Positions 63 through 11,200 of a stretch of 21,339 nucleotides of DNA are shown here, piece after piece. Each line of letters starts with the position of its first letter. Within the stretch, counting starts at the first letter, position 1. The translations under genes were made by a program, and so were the position numbers. Source of the DNA: a virus; IMG/VR virus record IMGVR_UViG_3300030406_000560, positions 1 to 21,339 of that record. One strand, written 5' to 3'. The notes beneath the pieces are model-generated. The model did no database searches. It saw only the letters and a program-made list of their open reading frames with translations, and was not told the origin of the DNA.

Positions 63-1559
63 CTAAAGCGGAAAGTATTTTTGCGTCTGAGGTTCTATCA
101 GATAGAGATTCTCTTTCGCCCTAGTTAGACCCACATAGAAGACACGCGACTCATCGTCTGGGTTATTTTGAAACGATTTATACACGCGACTTGATATATC
201 TGTCAGCAGTATGACATTACTTGCCTCACCTCCTTTTGCTGCATGGATCGTGGATAGTCGTATCCTTGGTTCTTTCGTAATCTTTTCACCTCTACGAAGC
301 ATCGCTCGGATATAACTCCTCTCATCTACCGAAACACCTGTAAAAACATCGTACCAATATTCATTAGGAAGATTGGGAACATGCTTCTTAGCTGTATCAT
401 ATGATATTAAAGTATCAAAGTCGATTTTCTCGAGGGAGGTAGGTGTCCGAAGCTTTAAATAATTTAAGACTTTGGTAAGTTGTGCTACGGGTATCGGCTC
501 TCCTTTCCTAAAATTTTCCCAAGATTGCACTGCCATGATCTTTCTCTCCGAAACACTAGGTTTATTTTTAGTTTGGTAAAACCATCCTTCGGATCTGCAG
601 TGTTGTTCTATACTGTTTAACAGATAATTTGTTCTTGCTAAGACTAACCAGTCATCATGTTCCATGTCTATCGTTTCGTAAGATGGCTCCCACGAAACGT
701 GGCCCTCTTCTTTTCTAGGATTCCAGGTTTTATGTACTCGAGATCCTACTTGTCCGATACAACGTTCTGCAAGAGTATGGATAGATTTAGGGATTCTATA
801 AGACTGTTTAAGAACCATCGCGTCCTTAGAGTTACGGATTAGGTAATCAACATCTGCACCAGCCCAACGATAGATAGCTTGATCATCATCCCCTGCTATA
901 TAAACACGATCCGCAGAATCACAAAGCTTTCTAACTACTGCCCACTGTAGAGGAGATAAGTCTTGTGCCTCGTCTACAAACATCACGTCTAACTTAGGGG
1001 CGTGACCACGATCTAAAAACATCTGAAGCATATCGGTGTAGTCGATAAGTAATCGGTCTCGCTTAAATAATTTTAATCCGTTAGCGAATCTTTCTAATTC
1101 AAACCAGCCTACTGCATCATCTGCTTCATGCCACTGCGTTTCTAAATCTACTTGCCTCATCCTCGCAAGGTTTTCTATAAACAGCAGTCTGTCATCTTTA
1201 GAGATACCAGAGATATGTCCTTCGTCAGTGTTTACTGCACCTTTTAATCTAAGGTTTAGTTTCTCGTTTAGATCGTAAATATCCGAGGAGGACATCACGC
1301 TATCTTTAGACAGACCTAACTGTTGAAAGCAGAGTGAATGAAGTGTTCTAAAATACGGTAGTTGGTTTTTCGTTATGGCAAACTTAGACATAGCTCGAGA
1401 CTTACCCTCTTGCACTGCCTGTTTAGTAAACGTAAAGAATCCAATATCTTCTGGACAAGTACCACGATCTAGTTCTTCTTCTAACAAACCTAACAGTGTG
1501 CTAGTCTTACCTGTTCCAGGAGGCCCAAGAATTACCTGTGTATCAGAGGAGAGCATCAC
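63..1559 (-). CDS. UvrD/Rep-like superfamily 1 DNA helicase
   Basis: This is an ATP-dependent 3'-5' helicase of the UvrD/PcrA type, probably acting in phage DNA replication or recombination in the cytoplasm. All diagnostic SF1A motifs are visible: Walker A GPPGTGKT (residues 12-19), Ia TFTKQA (43-48), Walker B with VDEAQD (195-200), motif III GDDDQAIYRWAG (223-234), motif IV SYRIP (253-257), motif V STIHAAKGGEA (436-446) and motif VI VFYVGLTRAKENLY (473-486). At 498 aa it is much shorter than the roughly 700-aa cellular UvrD, so the accessory 1B/2B domains must be reduced. The annotated start is GTG, and an ATG follows directly. The primase stop TGA overlaps it (GTGATG), so translation is probably coupled, and I see no strong ribosome binding site. 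The family is certain; the specific role in the phage is inferred. Confidence 0.93.
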   Translation of the reverse strand: MMLSSDTQVILGPPGTGKTSTLLGLLEEELDRGTCPEDIGFFTFTKQAVQEGKSRAMSKFAITKNQLPYFRTLHSLCFQQLGLSKDSVMSSSDIYDLNEKLNLRLKGAVNTDEGHISGISKDDRLLFIENLARMRQVDLETQWHEADDAVGWFELERFANGLKLFKRDRLLIDYTDMLQMFLDRGHAPKLDVMFVDEAQDLSPLQWAVVRKLCDSADRVYIAGDDDQAIYRWAGADVDYLIRNSKDAMVLKQSYRIPKSIHTLAERCIGQVGSRVHKTWNPRKEEGHVSWEPSYETIDMEHDDWLVLARTNYLLNSIEQHCRSEGWFYQTKNKPSVSERKIMAVQSWENFRKGEPIPVAQLTKVLNYLKLRTPTSLEKIDFDTLISYDTAKKHVPNLPNEYWYDVFTGVSVDERSYIRAMLRRGEKITKEPRIRLSTIHAAKGGEASNVILLTDISSRVYKSFQNNPDDESRVFYVGLTRAKENLYLIEPQTQKYFPL

Positions 1560-3079
1560 AAAATACTATCATCGAAGTCAGGTAGATTATGTGACTCTGT
1601 CTGTACCTGAAACTCTGGTATATGCCACACGTTTGCACCTTTACCTTTTATATTGAAGAAGTAAGAGTCGCCGCCTATGTTTTTCAGTTTAGCGGTCAAC
1701 TTATTTCTAGGGTAATCTCTGAAGTTTTTACGATGTAGATAATCAACTAGATCTGCTAATCTAAAATACGTCCGTCCTTTATCAGTCCAGGGTTTACCGA
1801 GTAATAGTTCATCACGTTCCCTAGCTGGTCTTTCGGTGCAAAAGGTTTCTAATAACTCGTTAAAATGACCCTCAGTCGAAGCGTCTTTTGGAACTTCAAT
1901 AATCGTAAGCGTATCTAACAACTGTTGTATTATCTGTCGCCAAACGTTATCTCTAACTTTAGGTGGAATAATATTTAAGTGATCCATACACTTTCTTTGA
2001 AACCGTGTCTGGTTTAGTAACTCTTCAGTCTCGAGTTCTAAACGACCGCCCTCGACATCTAAAAACCATATCGGTGGGTCACTATTTTGTTTGGTTAGGT
2101 TACTGAACAGGGGAGTACCGCCTGACGCACCAATACCGAACTTTCTAGTTCTACATAATGGACTATTACAATGTCCCGATATCGGTTGATCGTTACATTT
2201 ATAAAAGTAATCTTTTCGTTGCACTTGTTTCGTAACTGTTAGAACTTCTTGTGAACTTAACGGTGGGGTAAAGTGTTGATGATTAGCTTCTTCAACACGC
2301 TTCTCCCAATCGTCAGGGAACTTCTTTCTTAGAAACACCCCTAGATTAAATAACCCAGAGTTACGAGTGCCTTTAGGAAAACCCTGAGCGACTAGATGCT
2401 CGAGGCAAGGAGGAGATTGATCTAGCCACTCAGAGTCTTCTATCACTGGAACAACGTCCAGCTTATCTAATTCTTCTTCTGTTAGAACCAGAGTCTCTGC
2501 GTACTCTATAAATTCTTTAGGTGTAAGAACTTTGCCTGTAGGCCCGAAAGCATAACCAGTAGAGTTCTCTCCTCCGAAGTATGGCATGTTCAAAGAACTG
2601 CCACGATCCCCTCTTTCTAACAATAATTTAGTTTGCTTAGGAAATATCTCCGACTGCCCAAACCCTATGGCTGAAGCAACCTGCCTAAGTTTCCTTTGCA
2701 TAGTAGACGCAGGGACAGGATCGAACACGAAGATAAATAGATGTGCTCCCCCACTCTTTGATCTACAAACTACCAGTGGTAGCTTAAACTTTTTTAATTT
2801 CTTAGCGAGTCCTTTTAAATCTACAGTGAACTCATCTATATCTATCGAACCCCATACACAACTGTTGTTTTCATCTATCGGGACGATACCTAAACCTATT
2901 TCTCCTTTTAAGTGTTGACTCCAAAGATCGTTGAGCTCTTTTTGTGTGAGCTCTTTCGATATAGTTACATACTTGCCTTTTGCTTTACCGTCTTCTCTAG
3001 TTTCTTTCGTCGGGGTAAAGACACTGTAGCCTTGCCTTAACCCCGCGAAACGGTGCGCAAACTCCTCTTGTAATGACAT
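1556..3079 (-). CDS. Archaeo-eukaryotic-type (AEP) DNA primase
   Basis: This protein would synthesise primers for phage replication. The N-terminal domain has the AEP catalytic signature: DID (D80, D82) in GSIDIDEF, SGGAH (109-113) with the conserved His, then SEIFPKQ (143-149) and NMPYFGG (164-170). This arrangement matches AEP primases of the TOTE-conflict-system type that are widespread in phages. A helical region (about 223-266) looks like a PriCT-style linker. It is followed by a Cys/His cluster, C295, H303, C304, C309, in KCNDQPISGHCNSPLCRTRK, which probably binds zinc. The C-terminal 180 residues are unassigned. The start ATG is preceded by AAGGGTGA. The gene lies 16 bp from the SSB-like gene and overlaps the helicase, as expected in a primase-helicase operon. 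No polymerase domain is visible, so a PrimPol activity is possible but untested. Confidence 0.85.
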   Translation of the reverse strand: MSLQEEFAHRFAGLRQGYSVFTPTKETREDGKAKGKYVTISKELTQKELNDLWSQHLKGEIGLGIVPIDENNSCVWGSIDIDEFTVDLKGLAKKLKKFKLPLVVCRSKSGGAHLFIFVFDPVPASTMQRKLRQVASAIGFGQSEIFPKQTKLLLERGDRGSSLNMPYFGGENSTGYAFGPTGKVLTPKEFIEYAETLVLTEEELDKLDVVPVIEDSEWLDQSPPCLEHLVAQGFPKGTRNSGLFNLGVFLRKKFPDDWEKRVEEANHQHFTPPLSSQEVLTVTKQVQRKDYFYKCNDQPISGHCNSPLCRTRKFGIGASGGTPLFSNLTKQNSDPPIWFLDVEGGRLELETEELLNQTRFQRKCMDHLNIIPPKVRDNVWRQIIQQLLDTLTIIEVPKDASTEGHFNELLETFCTERPARERDELLLGKPWTDKGRTYFRLADLVDYLHRKNFRDYPRNKLTAKLKNIGGDSYFFNIKGKGANVWHIPEFQVQTESHNLPDFDDSIL

Positions 3080-3896: not shown

Positions 3897-4469
3897 CTAC
3901 TTTATTTTGGCGCGGGATCCCACGTATATCCCGAAGGTTTCAGAGGGAATATCTTTCCCTTTCGTGAGCTGCTCTTTCACAAACGCATTTAACGTCTGTG
4001 GATGAACACCTTGTTTAACAGCAGGGTCATGACCTAACTGTTTTAATTTGTTTATTGCATCGTCTGCTTTTTTATTTTCGTCTTTACCGAACTTGACAGT
4101 AACTTCGTGTTTAATAATTCCAGCGTGTCCGTTATCGACTAACCATTGATGAGCTGCTACTCTATTAGCTTCTGATATATGCGCTCTATAAAACTCTTCT
4201 ACTTTGATCGAAGAACCATCGGTCAATGTAATCTGTTTTAGATTAGCAGCTTGCATAGCTTCAGGTAAATCTACTTCTCTAACCGTTTTGAGATTATTTT
4301 TAGCTTCTTCTAATTCGAGTTCTAGTTGTTGTACAATCTTTTCGTTTTGTTGTAACAACTCCGCTAGTTGCGATATTCTATTGTATTCACCATCGGTGGT
4401 TTCTTCAGTCCAGGTTTTAGTTTCCTCACCTACTAAATCCTCGAACGTTAGTTGAGATTCCTCAGACAT
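3897..4469 (-). CDS. Conserved phage protein of unknown function, coiled coil
   Basis: I do not recognise a named family. The first 28 residues are acidic (TFEDLVGEE). Residues 29-64 form a heptad-rich Gln/Glu/Leu coiled coil. The rest (65-190) is compact, with the well-ordered stretches EFYRAHISEANRVAAHQWL (92-110), VHPQTLNAFVKEQL (155-168) and IPSETFGIYVG (174-184) that look conserved rather than low-complexity. The start has a good ribosome binding site (AGGAG, about 6 nt upstream). The gene overlaps the preceding 112-aa gene by 8 bp and lies 9 bp before the SSB-like gene, so a replication-accessory role is likely, perhaps as an oligomeric partner of the primase or helicase. No membrane segment or signal peptide is seen. 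Confidence 0.75.
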   Translation of the reverse strand: MSEESQLTFEDLVGEETKTWTEETTDGEYNRISQLAELLQQNEKIVQQLELELEEAKNNLKTVREVDLPEAMQAANLKQITLTDGSSIKVEEFYRAHISEANRVAAHQWLVDNGHAGIIKHEVTVKFGKDENKKADDAINKLKQLGHDPAVKQGVHPQTLNAFVKEQLTKGKDIPSETFGIYVGSRAKIK

Positions 4470-4800
4470 ATACTTCTCCTAAATTGTCCATATAGCCTCG
4501 ACGGATATCGAAACTAACAGGGTAATAAGTCATTTCTTGTTTATCCCACTTCAATACTTTGAAACTACCGTTACTTGCAGCAGCAACTGCGCAACATAAA
4601 CCTATGGCAGCAGGGTCTCCTATAAGTAACAAATAATCTTCGTCATTGAAATCTATGAGTTTATTCTGGACTCGTTTCACTTCTGGTCCAGTGGAGAGCA
4701 TAAGGTTAGTTCTTGCTGGGAACACAACTTCTAAGTCCCCATACTTTTGTGCAGGAACAAGGTTACGTCCAGGAACGTCTTGAACAATATATACTGTCAT
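4462..4800 (-). CDS. Small conserved phage protein, first gene of replication operon
   Basis: The function is unknown. The 112-aa protein is soluble, with the distinctive stretches GRNLVPAQKYGDLEVVFPA (11-29), a central DFNDEDYLLLIGDPAAIGLC (50-69) and KVLKWDKQEMTYYPV (81-95). I recall very similar short proteins beside replication genes in uncultured marine phages, always hypothetical. It is the promoter-proximal gene of the leftward operon and begins at the edge of the 301-bp divergent regulatory region. The start is supported by AAAGGAG on the minus strand about 8 nt upstream (around 4809-4816). The gene overlaps the downstream 190-aa gene by 8 bp. Its leading position would give it early and high expression; no DNA-binding motif is apparent. 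Confidence 0.75.
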   Translation of the reverse strand: MTVYIVQDVPGRNLVPAQKYGDLEVVFPARTNLMLSTGPEVKRVQNKLIDFNDEDYLLLIGDPAAIGLCCAVAAASNGSFKVLKWDKQEMTYYPVSFDIRRGYMDNLGEVYV

Positions 4801-4878
4801 TCTAATTTCTCCTTTATAGAAAAAAGTTTAGGCGATACGAGTCTGGAAAGTAAAGCGTTATTATTTCTATTAGCTATT

Positions 4879-4888
4879 TTCTGTAGAA
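4879..4888. repeat. Dyad site 1 (TTCTGTAGAA)
   Basis: This is a perfect TTCT-N2-AGAA dyad. It extends to a 14-bp palindrome with 6-bp arms (TTTTCT GT AGAAAA, 4877-4890). It is the exact reverse complement of site 4 and lies about 80 bp upstream of the leftward gene start at 4800. It is probably an operator half of the divergent region. Confidence 0.45.
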
Positions 4889-4904
4889 AACTTTTATGAA
4901 AAAT

Positions 4905-4914
4905 TTTTACAGAA
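4905..4914. repeat. Dyad site 2, degenerate (TTTTACAGAA)
   Basis: It matches TTCTACAGAA at 9 of 10 positions (C to T in the left arm). It lies 26 bp from site 1 and is in the same orientation as site 4. It supports a repeated site rather than a single chance palindrome, but alone it would not be notable in AT-rich DNA. Confidence 0.35.
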
Positions 4915-4965
4915 TCGTGTAATAGAGTAATAGGTCTAATAAAGTAGAGTCTAAGTAGCTGAAAT

Positions 4966-4975
4966 TACTACAGAA
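4966..4975. repeat. Dyad site 3, degenerate (TACTACAGAA)
   Basis: It matches TTCTACAGAA at 9 of 10 positions (T to A in the left arm), in the same orientation as sites 2 and 4. It lies mid-way in the divergent region and shares the ACTACAGAA/TCTACAGAA core. Confidence 0.35.
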
Positions 4976-5042
4976 ACCAAAAAAGAGAGAAGTAATAGAA
5001 TATATTAGAAATATTAAAACGGGATCTGCCCACGAAATAAAT

Positions 5043-5071
5043 TATCTATTTTATTTTTTCTCTACTATAAT
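5043..5071 (+). promoter_or_regulatory. Promoter of the SNF2 helicase gene
   Basis: A perfect TATAAT -10 box lies at 5066-5071, giving a predicted start near 5078 and a roughly 24-nt leader before the TTG start at 5102. The -35 region (about 5042-5048, TTATCTA) matches TTGACA poorly. The promoter is therefore either weak, dependent on an activator, or read by a phage-modified polymerase. Dyad site 4 covers the predicted start, which suggests repression. Confidence 0.55.
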
Positions 5072-5072
5072 C

Positions 5073-5082
5073 TTCTACAGAA
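5073..5082. repeat. Dyad site 4 overlapping the predicted transcription start
   Basis: This is an exact TTCTACAGAA (TTCT-N2-AGAA dyad), starting 1 bp after the TATAAT box and covering the predicted +1. It is the reverse complement of site 1. Placement immediately downstream of a -10 box is the classical position for a repressor operator. Confidence 0.45.
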
Positions 5083-5101
5083 TTTAGAAAGGAACAACGT
5101 C

Positions 5102-6544
5102 TTGAAATATGAATTCAAGACTGAACCGTTTGAACATCAGCGTACAGCTTTATTACGTTCATGGGATAAAAAGAAGTATGCGTTCTTCATGGAGATGGGA
5201 ACGGGGAAGTCTAAAGTCTTAATTGACACAATAGGTATCCTCTACTGTAAAGGAGCCATAGACTCTGTTGTTATCGTTGCACCCAAAGGTGTCTATAAAA
5301 ACTGGGAGTCTCGTGAAATACCAACACATTTACCTGACTATATAGATCGTCACGTAGCAGTTTGGTCTCCTGCCCCACGTAAAGAAGAAAAGAAAGCTCT
5401 TACTTCTTTGTTTGACCTGATTGATAAACTTAAAATATTTATTATCAATGTAGAAGCATTTAGCACTAAAAAAGGTGTTACGTTCACAGAGAAGTTCGTA
5501 CTAAGCCACAGACCACTGTTCGCGGTAGATGAATCTACCACTATTAAGAATCCTAAAGCAGCTAGAACAAAAGCAATAATTAAGATCAGCAAAGATGCAG
5601 CGTTTAGAAGAATCCTAACAGGATTCCCGATTACGCAATCACCTCTTGATCTATATAGCCAAACAGAAACGTTAGAGAAAAGTTTGTTAGGTTTTACTTC
5701 TTATTATTCTTTTCAAAACCATTACGGTGAGGTTGTTAATAGATATTTCGGTGGGAGAACAGTCAAACAAGTTGTAGGGTATCGGAACCTTTCTGAACTT
5801 ACAAAGAAACTAGATTCTTTTTCTTACAGAGTATTAAAGAAAGACTGTTTAGATTTACCAGATAAGATTTATCAGCGTAGGGATGTAGAACTAACTGCTG
5901 AACAAAAGAAGTTGTATTCTGAACTTAAAGATCGTGCGATTACGATTCTACAAAATCAAGAACAAATATCTGTTACGAATATACTCACCCAGTTACTAAG
6001 ACTTCATCAGATAGTTACGGGCCATGTAAAGTCTGACGATGATGTAGATATCCCTGTAGATAATAATCGCATAGACGCTATGTTCGAAGTTATCTCAGAG
6101 ATGCAAGGTAAAGTAATTATTTGGGCAAACTACAGACAAAATATCCTGGAAATTGTTGATAGTCTCAAACAAGTATTTGATCCTAATGAAGTTGCTTCTT
6201 ACTTCGGAGACACTTCTCCAGATGAACGAGAAAGAGTAATTAAAGACTTCCAGAACCCTGATTCACCGTTACGGTTTTTCGTAGGTAATACACAAACAGG
6301 TGGCTATGGTATTACATTAACAGAAGCTAAGAATGTAATTTATTACTCTAACAACTTTGATTTAGAAAAACGTTTACAGTCAGAAGATAGAGCGCACCGT
6401 ATCGGACAAGTCAACAAAGTTACTTATGTTGATCTTGTAGCTAAAGATACTGTAGACGAAAAAATAGTCGACGCTCTTAGAAATAAATTAGATCTCGCCC
6501 AAGAAGTATTAGGAGATGATAAATGGCAAAACTGGTTAGGTTAG
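5102..6544 (+). CDS. SNF2-family superfamily 2 helicase/translocase
   Basis: This is an ATP-dependent double-stranded DNA translocase that remodels protein-DNA complexes. The motifs run in order: Q-like FEHQRTAL (10-17), Walker A MGTGKSK (32-38), Ia VVIVAPKGVYKNW (56-68), motif II DEST in VDESTTIKN (142-150), motif III LTGFPITQSPLDLY (172-185), and motifs V/VI in the C-terminal lobe ending SEDRAHRIGQ. At 480 aa it is a minimal two-lobe SNF2 core without accessory domains, as is usual in phages. Motif II is DEST rather than the usual DEAH/DESH. The start is TTG, chosen because AGAAAGGA sits 8 nt upstream and the helicase fold begins directly after; an ATG at 5109 is out of frame. It is the only rightward gene, with its own promoter, and its end overlaps the convergent 106-aa gene by 9 bp. 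The exact phage role (replication restart, recombination or displacing host proteins) is open. Confidence 0.92.
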   Translation: MKYEFKTEPFEHQRTALLRSWDKKKYAFFMEMGTGKSKVLIDTIGILYCKGAIDSVVIVAPKGVYKNWESREIPTHLPDYIDRHVAVWSPAPRKEEKKALTSLFDLIDKLKIFIINVEAFSTKKGVTFTEKFVLSHRPLFAVDESTTIKNPKAARTKAIIKISKDAAFRRILTGFPITQSPLDLYSQTETLEKSLLGFTSYYSFQNHYGEVVNRYFGGRTVKQVVGYRNLSELTKKLDSFSYRVLKKDCLDLPDKIYQRRDVELTAEQKKLYSELKDRAITILQNQEQISVTNILTQLLRLHQIVTGHVKSDDDVDIPVDNNRIDAMFEVISEMQGKVIIWANYRQNILEIVDSLKQVFDPNEVASYFGDTSPDERERVIKDFQNPDSPLRFFVGNTQTGGYGITLTEAKNVIYYSNNFDLEKRLQSEDRAHRIGQVNKVTYVDLVAKDTVDEKIVDALRNKLDLAQEVLGDDKWQNWLG

Positions 6545-6857: not shown

Positions 6858-8237
6858 TTAATTCCTCGGTACGTTAGGTCTAAAAGCGTTTTGAAAAGGA
6901 GCTACATTAGTATCAAAGTTCGTAAGATCCATAATACCGTTACTTACTTGTCCTCCTTGGCTAAATGAACCGCCAGTAAAAGGATTAGAATATTGAGTTC
7001 CTAAAAGAGGACTAGACCCTTGTCCATACTCTTCAGCAGTAAACGGTGCTTGATAACTACCATAACTAGGTGTAAATGTTTTTAAGTAAGTGCTAAATGC
7101 ATCCTGACCAAGTCCTTGACGCTGCCCACCTATCAAATTAGCCATGGGACTACCACCTGGAAGGAAAGAAGCACCACTACTAAACTGTGATGTTGACCCT
7201 GTTCGTGGACCAGTAGGCACAGCTCCTCTGAAGAAAGTATCTAAATCTTCTTTAGTGTCTTGTATTTGTTGATTAACAGCATCAGCTTCATATTGAGACT
7301 GAACATCTTGATATTTAGTTTCAAGTTGCCCTAATTTATTAGTAAGTTCTTTTATTGTAGCGTCGTAATCTGTCGCAGATGCTAATTCATCAGAAGTAAC
7401 AAATTGTTGTTGTCCTAAATAAGATTCTAATTGTTCAGGTGTTAAATAATTTTGAAATAAATTTTCTAAACCCTGAAGTTGTTCTTGAGTTGCAAACTGA
7501 CTTGTATCAAACTCTTCTAACCCTTGACTAATTAGTTGGTTTACTTGTTCTTCAGTTAATCCTGTTGTTCCTTCAGCGATAGCCTCTTCGACAGCTTCTT
7601 CTGTTTCAGCCTCTATATCTTGTATTGCTTCAGCAACTAAAGATTCTATTTCCTCTCTAGTTAAAATACCTTGTTCAAAAAGCTGTGCTAATTGATTTTC
7701 ATTTAATTCAAAACCACCTGAGATAATAGATAAAACATCATCTTTAGTTATGTCGCCCTCATCTATTCTTCTTTGTATTTCATCAGGAGTTAATGTTCCT
7801 TCAGCTAACATCTCAGCTATTGTTTGAGTAACCGTTTCTTCTGTAACGATAGGGTCAGTGCCAGTAGAAGTTTGTCCAGGAAGTGAACCAAGACCCTGAT
7901 TTAATTGATCCGTTAGGGCTTGAATATATTGCTCATATGCTCCCTCTGTAGTAGGAAAATCCCCACGAAAGACAAAATCTTCGGGACGGATAGAGAAATC
8001 TTCTCTTGAATTAGCGAAAGGAATTTCTGTAGTAGCTGTAGTAGTTGTTGCAGCAGGAACGGTCGTTGCAGCAGGGATACTTTGAGGATTACCGATACCG
8101 ACTAATAAATCTTGTAAGTTCGCTGGTAGTCGAAACTCGCTAACACCAACACCACCATTCATCATTCGCGGTGCTTCTACTTCGCTACTCTCGGACATCA
8201 TTTCAGGTAATGGTGGTTGGAATACTTCTATTTTCAT
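6858..8237 (-). CDS. Putative virion protein with helical tandem repeats
   Basis: The family is unrecognised. The N-terminus holds Met/Gly and Thr/Ala-rich linkers (PAATTVPAATTTTATT, 55-70). Residues about 131-290 form a series of degenerate 15-20-residue units with the pattern EG-x-[ILT]-T-x-[ED]-[ED]-[IVL]-x3-[IL]. Examples are EGTLTPDEIQRRI (146-158), EGDITKDDVLSII (160-172), QGILTREEIESLV (189-201), TGLTEEQVNQLI (225-236) and YLTPEQLESYL (264-274). Residues 291-336 are a coiled coil. The C-terminal 120 residues are Gly/Ser/Phe-rich and end with SQGGQVSNGIMDL (426-438). There is no signal peptide or membrane segment. It overlaps the 1120-aa gene as ATGA, so it is co-translated with the internal virion block. 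A structural or scaffold-like role is inferred from context only. Confidence 0.65.
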   Translation of the reverse strand: MKIEVFQPPLPEMMSESSEVEAPRMMNGGVGVSEFRLPANLQDLLVGIGNPQSIPAATTVPAATTTTATTEIPFANSREDFSIRPEDFVFRGDFPTTEGAYEQYIQALTDQLNQGLGSLPGQTSTGTDPIVTEETVTQTIAEMLAEGTLTPDEIQRRIDEGDITKDDVLSIISGGFELNENQLAQLFEQGILTREEIESLVAEAIQDIEAETEEAVEEAIAEGTTGLTEEQVNQLISQGLEEFDTSQFATQEQLQGLENLFQNYLTPEQLESYLGQQQFVTSDELASATDYDATIKELTNKLGQLETKYQDVQSQYEADAVNQQIQDTKEDLDTFFRGAVPTGPRTGSTSQFSSGASFLPGGSPMANLIGGQRQGLGQDAFSTYLKTFTPSYGSYQAPFTAEEYGQGSSPLLGTQYSNPFTGGSFSQGGQVSNGIMDLTNFDTNVAPFQNAFRPNVPRN

Positions 8238-11200
8238 AACGCAAAAATCCTACCAAATAAGTCAGTCAAACCTGTCACGTCACCCTGGATTCTTTTTATA
8301 GCTTTATCTTCTTTTTTCTCTCTTAACTCTGAACCTATGTCGACAGTTCTACTACCAGCTAGAGCACCAATAAATTTATAAAAATCTCGTCTACTTATCT
8401 CTTTTGATCTATCTGACAGTAAAACATCTAATTTACGAGGATCAGCTAAAACTTCTAATAAATCACTTTTAGCTTGATTACGATAACCCGCTATAAAAGC
8501 TGTAACTCTTCTTCCTAACTGTGTAAGAGGAGGAATAAACATTTTTGTACTAATAGCTATTTCTTGTAAATGATCATCTATTGTTTGATTAGCTGTCGCT
8601 CCTTGAATCATTGGGCTTCTCGACGCTCGGTTTACACCTCTATCTAATAATTGACCTAGTATTCTTAAATCTTTAGCATATTTAAGACCTTCTTTTTCAC
8701 CTAAGAGTGGTTTAAATGTTAGCGCAAATTCAGAAGTACCTTCTTGTCCCGCTCTATACCCCTCCTTCACAAAATTAATAAAGCCTTGTACATCAAAATT
8801 ACCTGTATCAAACATATCTCCGGTGCGGGTTGTTTCAAAACGGTCACGAAAGAAATTTCTAGTAATTGCAGTTACATAAGGTCGTAACTCAGGATTTTGT
8901 TTAATTAGATCACCAAATTCTTGACGAGATATTTCATTTGCACCTGTTAATCGTGCAGTCCTCCCTTGTATCAAAAAATCTCTGATAAAATTAGTTGGAG
9001 ATTTTTTAAGTCTTTTTTCTAAATCTAATAAAGTTTCAGCAGTTTGATTTATCTCTTGTAACGCTTGTTCCTGTACTTCTGAAAAATTTTTAAGTTTTAA
9101 AAACTCTGCTTCAGGAAATAATGCTTCTAGTTGTTGCTCATTCTTTTCTAAAAATTTAGCGTAAGCTTTATTTTGTTCCGCTAAAGGTAGTCCACTTAAT
9201 CCTTGACGCATATTTTCTACAACTAATTGTCGTAAGCTCTGCATTCGCACAATAGAATCAGGCAGATTATAAATCTGTGCTAGTAGTTCATTTATTTGTT
9301 TCGGACTAGAAGATAAAACAAAATCAGCTATTTCAGATGGTTCTTTATCAACTAACTGACGGATGAATTTACGTTCGATTGCCTGATTAGCTGTTTGCAA
9401 ATCACTTTGTGCTTTAATTAAAGGACCAGCTATTTCTTGAATTTTATCTCTCAATACTTTAGGAGTAGGGGATTCAATACCCTCAGCAGCTAGTTGCTTA
9501 CGTGCATTATATGTAATTAAATCGTCTATTTGATCTTCTATCGCGTCACGTAATCCAGCAGCAACTTCTCGCACACCTCTATCAGGACTTTGCATAAATA
9601 GTGTGTTTAAAGCGTTCTGCATACCAGCTAGTTGACCAAAATTTAAATCTGCTTGTTTTAAAAACTTCCCAGCTTCATCTTGACGAACACCTAAAAGTTG
9701 ACGTAAAACACTTACACCGTCACGCATGGGAATCATGCTTTTAATTACATCAGAAGCTTCGACTTCTCCTAATGTACGCATAATCGCGTCTTTATCATCG
9801 CCAGCATTAAACGCAGCTTGGAAAGCTGGGATAACCTTACTGGTTGAATCAGCTTTACGGTCATATTTTAAACCAGCTAAAGCATTTATTTCAGTGTCTA
9901 CAGCTTCTTTTGCAGCGTTGTAAGAATCATCATATTGAGATAAAAACTCAGGAGAATTACGTTTAAATATTAATCCACCTGTTTCTCTATCACGAGTAAA
10001 AGTAGAACCTAGCTCATCTATAGTAAGCATCTGTTCAGGAGCTTGTTCAGGTAAAACTTGCTCTAGTTGAGCTCCTTCTTCTATTTCTCGAGTTTTTATT
10101 TTTGCAGCTTCAGCAGCTTGCTCAGCGTAATTTTTTTGTTGTTTAGCTAAAAAATCTCTAAATTCAGTATATGAGATAGCCTGAAATTCAGGAGCGTTTT
10201 TAGTAAGTTCTGTCCAAAAATTAAACGCTGCTTCAGCATTATTATCTAAAATATCTTGGTAAGCTTGTCTACCTTTAGCCGTTGGAGATAATTGAGCAAA
10301 TAATTCTAGTTCTATGTTTTTTAATTCATTATCTTGAGTTAATTCACCAGCAGTTGGTTTATACTCTTTAAGATTATTACCTACTGCAATAGCAGCTTCG
10401 CGAGTTCTTTCTTGTAATTCTTCCGATGTAAATTCTTCAGTTGTACCTTTTGTTTTTACACTAGCTATTTTCTCTTTAAGTTTTTTTATTGTTGCTTCAG
10501 GAATTGCAGATCCTGTAATAGCTTTCCAAACCCTACCTAAAACTGCTATACCCGTTCCAACTACAGCTGACCCTGCTGTCGCATACATAGCAGCTAATTG
10601 TGCATCATCAAAAGCACGTTCTACAGAGATATCGTTAATACCTTTTGCTTTACCGTAAGCTAACTGTGCAAAACGACCATAACCCGCTGCTAAACCTGCA
10701 ACTCCTACAGAGGATGTTCCTCTAGCTACTTTTCGAAGATTACCTACTTGTTCAGCACCTTCTCCCAAAAGTTTTTGTATTCCTTTTAGACCAATAAGCT
10801 CACCAATGATTGCTGTTGTTTCTTGACCAACCCCAGTAATTAACCCTTCTATTGCTGATTCGTAACCAAATTGAGGTCGTAAGGGTACAAATTTACCCCC
10901 TGTCGTTTCATCACGAATCGCGAGTCCTGCATCAGGGTCTCTTGGGTTTATATATCTTATTTCTGCGTTAGGTGATTCTTTTTCTACTAACTTTTTTGCT
11001 TCAAAAGGTGTTAAATTTATCGGGAAAAAGAAAGCTTTGACTCTCCAAGGTGAGTTTTCATCTACAGGATCAGAACCTTGTATAAATTTTTCATAAAAGT
11101 TTTGATCTCCTTGATAAATTACGTCAGCGTCTACACCATAAGAAGCTAATTCCTGACGTTTGTTCTCATCTATTAAAGACTCAGTTACTCCAGAATAATC

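What the first reader, a model, noticed from the sequence alone, without database searches (positions are those of the whole stretch)
4801..5101. Four-site dyad array in the divergent regulatory region, one on the predicted +1
TTCT-N2-AGAA-like sites occur at 4879, 4905, 4966 and 5073. Two are perfect inverse copies, one of which extends to a 14-bp palindrome, and site 4 lies immediately downstream of a TATAAT box. This suggests an undescribed phage repressor or activator, or origin iterons, controlling both the replication operon and the SNF2 gene. No regulator gene is visible in the window.
Basis: seen in the sequence. Interest (0 to 1): 0.55.

Follow-up and report, generated by a model that had tools for sequence, protein, structure and literature searches.

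The report
Paired control element in uncultured phages

Summary
The four TTCT-N2-AGAA sites exist as described, but are statistically weak once other motifs are allowed for, survive only in the two nearest relatives, and have no exact copy in the second element of G002. What is conserved in the same 301-bp gap is another array: TAATAG half-sites in three groups (C, A, B) around an A/T tract. In relatives chosen by the helicase gene alone, A and B are the most conserved stretches of the gap (about 0.8 pairwise identity; wobble sites 0.42-0.44). A homologous copy lies upstream of the small-terminase gene. Of 80 loci found with a DNA pattern alone, 33 lie in the p112/helicase gap, 44 upstream of terS, 3 elsewhere or unclear. 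In 12 contigs read in full, every helicase gene (11 of 11) and every terS (9 of 9) has one copy, none elsewhere. The genome is essentially two long operons, and the copies head them. Best reading: binding platform of a phage regulator setting early against late transcription (0.48). Main rival: paired replication origins, as in SPP1 (0.27). Binding and function were not tested.

The parts
4855..5020 (+). element 1 (e1): whole conserved noncoding element, array C, A/T tract, array A, spacer, array B
   Evidence: profile built only from terS-side copies finds it at 4855-5020, E 1.4e-7; alignments of relatives
4859..4879 (-). array C: TATTA half-sites at 4859-4863 and 4868-4872 (9 bp apart), degenerate third at 4875-4879
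   Evidence: sequence; TATT and TATTA positions kept in 27 distinct e1; identity 0.60 in four unselected sequences
4880..4907 (.). A/T tract between the inverted arrays C and A
   Evidence: A/T runs kept at near-fixed distance from array A in 27 e1 and 33 e2; identity 0.64 against wobble 0.42-0.44
4920..4942 (+). array A: TAATAG 4920, TAATAG 4928, TAATAA 4937 (8 and 9 bp apart)
   Evidence: identity 0.83 in four unselected sequences, 0.79 in five
4993..5016 (.). array B: TAATAG 4993, then inverted TATTA 5003 and TATTA 5012
   Evidence: identity 0.82 over 4990-5017 in four unselected sequences, 0.71 in five
4825..4854 (-). possible leftward promoter of the replication operon: TTTACT (4854-4849), 18 bp, TAAACT (4830-4825), next to array C
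   Evidence: read from sequence and alignment; 4843-4858 identity 0.71 in the pattern-chosen set; not found by the consensus scan; inferred
5066..5071 (+). -10 box TATAAT of the helicase gene, with a poor -35
   Evidence: sequence; similar box at this place in relatives; the consensus scan found no promoter here
   Evidence: not conserved
4462..4800 (-). p112, first gene of the leftward replication operon, Pam3_gp32-like
   Evidence: Pfam PF23992 E 7.3e-27
5102..6544 (+). SNF2-type helicase gene, rightward, TTG start
   Evidence: phrog_62 DNA helicase E 2.6e-112

Best explanation
The gap holds one of two copies of a phage control element (e1; the other, e2, lies outside this window, upstream of the small terminase gene). 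Shown: the element consists of TAATAG half-sites mostly 8-9 bp apart in three groups (C pointing left, A pointing right, B mixed) around an A/T tract, is conserved above neutral, and stands at the head of both leftward operons (early/replication at e1, late/structural at e2) and of the lone rightward helicase gene. [quoted passage not shown] The likeliest protein among those seen is a 69-86-residue helix-turn-helix protein resembling sigma-70 region 4 alone, encoded in the early operon; that it binds the element is a guess.
For: Two copies at fixed places: 33 + 44 of 80 pattern-found loci; 11 of 11 helicase and 9 of 9 terS neighbourhoods in 12 contigs, none elsewhere at E<=1 apart from the element matching itself inverted. 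In six of those contigs (G026-G029, G031, G034) the terS-side copy lacks even the 13-base core of array A, yet the profile made from helicase-side copies alone finds it at E 2e-10 or better. e1-only profile finds e2 in G002, G005, G006, G008, G010, G011 (E 1.8e-24 to 1.4e-5); e2-only finds e1 in 10 genomes including the window (E 2.9e-19 to 1.4e-7); no hit in reversed sequence. Conservation in relatives not chosen for the element. e2 begins just after a perfect intrinsic terminator in 17 of 31 distinct copies against 0 of 27 e1 and 0 of 23 / 1 of 25 control stretches, so a new transcription unit starts there. Gene order: two leftward operons, unit about 58 kb, same plan in complete DSL-LC04. 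Distance A to B is 76-79 or 88 bp, about one helical turn apart and nothing between. Sigma4-like protein: PF04545 E 7.6e-8, found in 11 of 12 contigs, the twelfth holding only about 5.6 kb of the early block; model nearest sigma region 4 and KorA/ArdK, weakly.
Against: No protein has been shown to bind the element and no transcript start is mapped. A small sigma-like gene is also annotated in DSL-LC04, whose gap has no TAATAG array, so the protein is not tied to the element. The left half alone is recognised across copies only in some genomes (e1-left profile finds e2 in G002 at 1.4e-7 and G008 at 2.6e-5, but only at 0.28-0.73 in the four others). In G007 and G008 the e2-only profile sees e1 only at E 0.15-0.23, and in G011 the e1-only profile does not list e1 at all. 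The 88-bp class may be one ancestral insertion. The pattern search chose loci for arrays A and B, so conservation numbers from that set are biased; one search is unbiased but has only five sequences. Consensus promoter scans found nothing at the helicase or terS start. AT-rich direct repeats at two places suit origins as well.
Confidence: 0.48

Rival explanations
1. The two copies are a pair of replication origins, like oriL/oriR of phage SPP1: direct repeats bound by an initiator next to an A/T-rich unwinding stretch.
For: SPP1 has two origins about 13 kb apart, each of direct repeats plus an AT-rich unwinding element (PMC6316719, passages); here two copies about 17-21 kb apart across the early block with direct repeats and an A/T tract; e1 heads the replication operon.
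Against: Coding-strand skew at third positions shows no clear switch at e1 or e2 and window skew follows gene direction. Relatives with the same replication genes (HTVC027P = W01, G016, G018) gave no credible match to the element. e2 starts at an operon boundary with a terminator.
Confidence: 0.27
2. e2 is the packaging start (pac or cosB-like) bound by the small terminase, and e1 is a second terminase-binding site that regulates or is vestigial.
For: e2 is directly upstream of terS (44 of 80 loci; 9 of 9); the SPP1 pac overlaps the promoters and start of its terS (PMC6316719, passages); lambda cosB, with sites on both sides of a bend, is recalled, not looked up.
Against: e1 is conserved too but lies about 17-21 kb from terS across the early block; two packaging sites per genome would be odd. 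HTVC027P, whose terS is 33% identical, gave no credible match to the element.
Confidence: 0.12
3. The first reader's TTCT-N2-AGAA dyads are the operators of a phage repressor or activator.
For: Four copies in 301 bp, 7 of 2000 shuffles for this motif; site 3 is exact in L002.
Against: 83 of 2000 shuffles when any dyad is allowed; 0 or 1 match in 25 of 27 distinct gaps; no exact copy in e2 of G002.
Confidence: 0.05
4. The element acts as RNA (leader or riboswitch-like).
For: Noncoding and conserved.
Against: No Rfam match at E<=1 in 4600-5300; the arrays are simple spaced half-sites and lie upstream of the -10 box.
Confidence: 0.03

Closest known systems
phage phi29 p4/p6 early-late switch (p4 sites 1-4 between promoters A2c and A3)
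   Same: several inverted sites with A-tracts between early and late promoters; the late promoter has a poor -35 (PMC3100819, passages)
   Different: phi29 has one location, here there are two copies far apart; the half-site TAATAG is not the p4 consensus CTTTTT-15-AAAATG; no p4 relative was sought with its own model
SPP1 oriL/oriR
   Same: two places, direct repeats plus an AT-rich stretch (PMC6316719, passages)
   Different: SPP1 oriL lies inside the initiator gene; no initiator of that kind was named in the Pfam and PHROGs scans of 36 proteins, mostly early
KorA/ArdK plasmid regulators and sigma-70 region 4
   Same: the candidate early protein matches sigma-70 region 4 (PF04545) and weakly KorA; its model is nearest sigma region 4, KorA-operator and ArdK-direct repeat structures
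   Different: Foldseek E-values 0.1 or worse; KorA below its Pfam cut-off; binding to the element untested
HTVC023P-type pelagiphages and DSL-LC04
   Same: same replication cassette with a divergent helicase gene
   Different: no credible match to the element in HTVC027P; short gap without TAATAG arrays in DSL-LC04 and its 10 relatives

Membership tests
phage early-late transcription switch element | stands at heads of early and late units | tested here: met
   e1 at head of early operon, e2 at head of late operon; terminator before e2 in 17 of 31
phage early-late transcription switch element | bound by a phage regulator | not testable with these tools
   only a candidate protein
phage early-late transcription switch element | changes promoter output | not testable with these tools
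   no expression data for this phage; the HTVC027P RNA-seq paper (PMC12753301, section 12 read) gives no promoter map there
[quoted passage not shown]
SPP1-type dual origin | origin-binding protein of the gp38 kind encoded | tested here: inconclusive
   none named in Pfam or PHROGs scans of 36 proteins; most proteins unassigned
SPP1-type dual origin | replication starts there | not testable with these tools
   skew shows no switch, but skew is noisy in phages
pac / cosB packaging site | adjacent to terS | tested here: inconclusive
   met for e2, not for e1
pac / cosB packaging site | virion DNA ends at the site | not tested
   contig ends near the element were seen but not measured
TTCT-N2-AGAA operator | sites conserved in relatives | tested here: not met
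   0 or 1 match in 25 of 27 distinct gaps

The most novel reading that the evidence does not exclude
A control system in which one module (two inverted triplets of TAATAG half-sites across an A/T tract, plus a third array) is duplicated at the heads of the only two long operons of a 58-kb phage genome, and the two copies are bridged by a stand-alone sigma-region-4 protein into one loop that enforces early-or-late expression and possibly couples it to replication start.
Probability: 0.13. Interest if true: 0.7.

Novelty: new variant of a known kind. Interest (0 to 1): 0.42.

Why it matters
Regulation in these uncultured phages, relatives of the abundant HTVC023P-type pelagiphages, is unmapped; the RNA-seq section on HTVC027P reports early genes of unknown function and names no promoter motif (PMC12753301, section 12 read; 'promoter' occurs 0 times in its main text). 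A strongly conserved element at both operon heads is a concrete target: it can be put on a reporter plasmid and used as bait for its protein. I found no description of it in the paper library with 'TAATAG + phage' (listing only), 'phage + intergenic + pelagiphage + conserved motif' (no paper), DSL-LC04 and HTVC023P (listings; passages of PMC9599517 and PMC10611076); that is a thin search, not proof of absence.

Tried and rejected
TTCT dyads as the operator: dropped for non-conservation. TTCTGTAGAA in DSL-LC04 first looked like conservation; it is inside the helicase gene and not kept in its relatives. AGTGTACACT, a palindrome conserved in DSL-LC04-type gaps, was tested as that group's counterpart of a two-site element; it has one exact site in each of 7 records (one record has a second site with a mismatch) and fits a -10 box. 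A paired noncoding repeat like e1/e2 in HTVC027P, 023Pt_psg01 (first 50 kb only), DSL-LC04, G016 and G018: no pair linking the helicase gap with terS among the matches shown, at most 12 each. Search with the helicase in species genomes: no relative. GC skew for an origin: uninformative. Rfam: nothing. A second DNA pattern (63 stretches) mostly returned the same loci; its new loci were not classified. Contig ends near the elements were noticed and judged, without measurement, to be assembly breaks at repeated sequence.

Dropped before counts: of 94 stretches only the 80 listed were classified; identical or short windows were dropped to give 27 e1 and 33 e2; 2 of 33 e2 lacked enough upstream sequence; one sigma-like hit (L127) whose start was uncertain and one fragment (L150) were left out of the alignment of six.

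Full report
The observation. Across the window the motif is not enriched (28 against 22.6 +/- 4.8 in shuffles). Within the gap the chosen motif is rare in shuffles (7 of 2000), but a reader looking for any dyad would find one as good in 83 of 2000, and any 10-mer family of four in 127 of 500.

Surroundings. The gap separates a leftward operon (p112, p190, p263, primase, UvrD-like helicase) from a rightward SNF2-type helicase. The first three genes match Pfam families named after phage Pam3; the primase matches the AEP-TOTE primase domain. The nearest annotated phages are the pelagiphage HTVC027P, the seawater phage 023Pt_psg01 and the lake phage DSL-LC04.

Relatives. A scan with the helicase gave 22 loci at 48-99% identity. 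In the alignment of the gap (window plus 12 relatives with a long gap) the TTCT sites are kept only in L001 and L002 (99%), while TAATAGAGTAATAG..CTAATA and TAATAGAATATATTAG..TATTA are kept, with small changes, in the 80-87% relatives and partly in the 64% relative L011. The ten relatives at 48-50% have a gap of under 100 bp without these arrays. Measured on four sequences not chosen for the element, array A has 0.83 and array B 0.82 pairwise identity, the A/T tract 0.64, array C 0.60, the spacer 0.44, wobble sites of the flanking genes 0.42-0.44, and the TTCT sites 0.53, 0.52, 0.42 and 0.62; adding L011 gives A 0.79, B 0.71. TAATAG contains two stop codons, so its rarity inside genes means nothing; conservation and position carry the argument.

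A second copy. Clusters of TAATAG appeared at a second place in G002, G005, G006, G008, G010 and G011, upstream of a small-terminase gene. The two regions align over about 170 bp. Profiles made from one copy find the other: e1-only finds e2 in those six genomes (1.8e-24 to 1.4e-5); e2-only finds e1 in ten genomes at E 2.9e-19 to 1.4e-7, the window being the weakest of these, and in G007 and G008 only at 0.15-0.23; neither hits reversed sequence. With the part left of array A alone the cross-match is good in G002, G008 and G009 and weak elsewhere.

Collection-wide test. A pattern for arrays A and B, without any protein, gave 94 stretches in IMG/VR; of the 80 listed, 33 lie in the p112/helicase gap, 44 upstream of terS, and 3 (L077, L086, L133) elsewhere or too near an end to tell. 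Twelve of these contigs were then read in full: each of 11 helicase genes and each of 9 terS genes has one copy, and there is no third. In six of them (G026-G029, G031, G034) a whole-contig search for the 13-base core of array A found only the helicase-side copy, yet the e1-only profile found the terS-side copy at E 2e-10 or better; this is the strongest independent test.

Genome plan. G005 repeats its late genes about 58.4 kb apart, so the unit is about 58 kb. Nearly all genes run left: an early block from p112 to just before terS, and a late block from terS round to the window's structural genes; the complete circular DSL-LC04 has the same plan. Thus e1 and e2 head the two blocks, about 17-21 kb apart across the early block (in G027 they are 39 kb apart on a contig that seems to be cut inside the early block). 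e2 follows a perfect intrinsic terminator in 17 of 31 distinct copies (0 of 27 e1; controls 0 of 23 and 1 of 25).

Anatomy. C (TATTA repeats, leftward), an A/T tract, A (three rightward TAATA, 8 and 9 bp apart), a spacer, B (one rightward, two leftward). A to B measures 76, 78 or 79 bp in e1 and 77 or 88 bp in e2. C and A are inverted copies of each other, seen also as weak matches of the profile to its own opposite strand. The presumed early promoter abuts C; the -10 box of the helicase and, by inspection, that of terS lie downstream of B; consensus scans find no full promoter there.

Who binds. Pfam scans of 36 proteins, mostly of the early blocks of G005 and G002, and of 43 others found one clear small DNA-binding candidate besides the terminase: a sigma-70 region-4-like protein (PF04545 7.6e-8; Mor 2e-5, just over its cut-off), present in 11 of 12 contigs, with the invariant core T-K-x-R-x-W-Q-I in six sequences. 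Its model (pLDDT 76) is nearest sigma region 4 and KorA/ArdK but at E 0.1 or worse. An early protein with a SutA RNA-polymerase-binding domain is present in G005.

Judgement. Placement at both operon heads and the terminator before e2 favour transcriptional control; direct repeats with an A/T tract at two places fit dual origins as in SPP1 nearly as well; adjacency to terS keeps packaging alive for e2. No step of binding or function has been shown here.

Noticed in passing
G008 (reverse orientation) 3926-3985, 5528-5587, 6867-6926, 10070-10127: Four dispersed 60-bp promoter-like repeats (TAGTGGTTTTTTATAGTC...TATAAT) inside the early block, found only in this one of 16 genomes at E<=0.01.
   Followed up: partly
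G016 and G018 early blocks (e.g. G018 2459, 3398, 4322, 9337): The 49%-helicase group has its own dispersed promoter-like repeats and a short gap without the element.
   Followed up: no
gap of L170-L174, L178, L179 and DSL-LC04 (record 34941-34950): Conserved palindrome AGTGTACACT at the same divergent promoter in DSL-LC04-type phages, probably including a -10 box.
   Followed up: partly
locus L041:17912-18154:+ (G005): 80-aa phage protein with a SutA RNA-polymerase-binding domain (PF20661, E 2.3e-11), perhaps a second transcription modulator.
   Followed up: no
G005, 81,920 bases: Contig carries much of the late block twice in diverged form (28-94% protein identity, about 58.4 kb apart), so it is probably a join of two strains or more than one genome unit.
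   Followed up: partly
window 1556-3079: The 'primase' matches the archaeo-eukaryotic primase domain of TOTE conflict systems (PF22548, E 6.3e-13).
   Followed up: no
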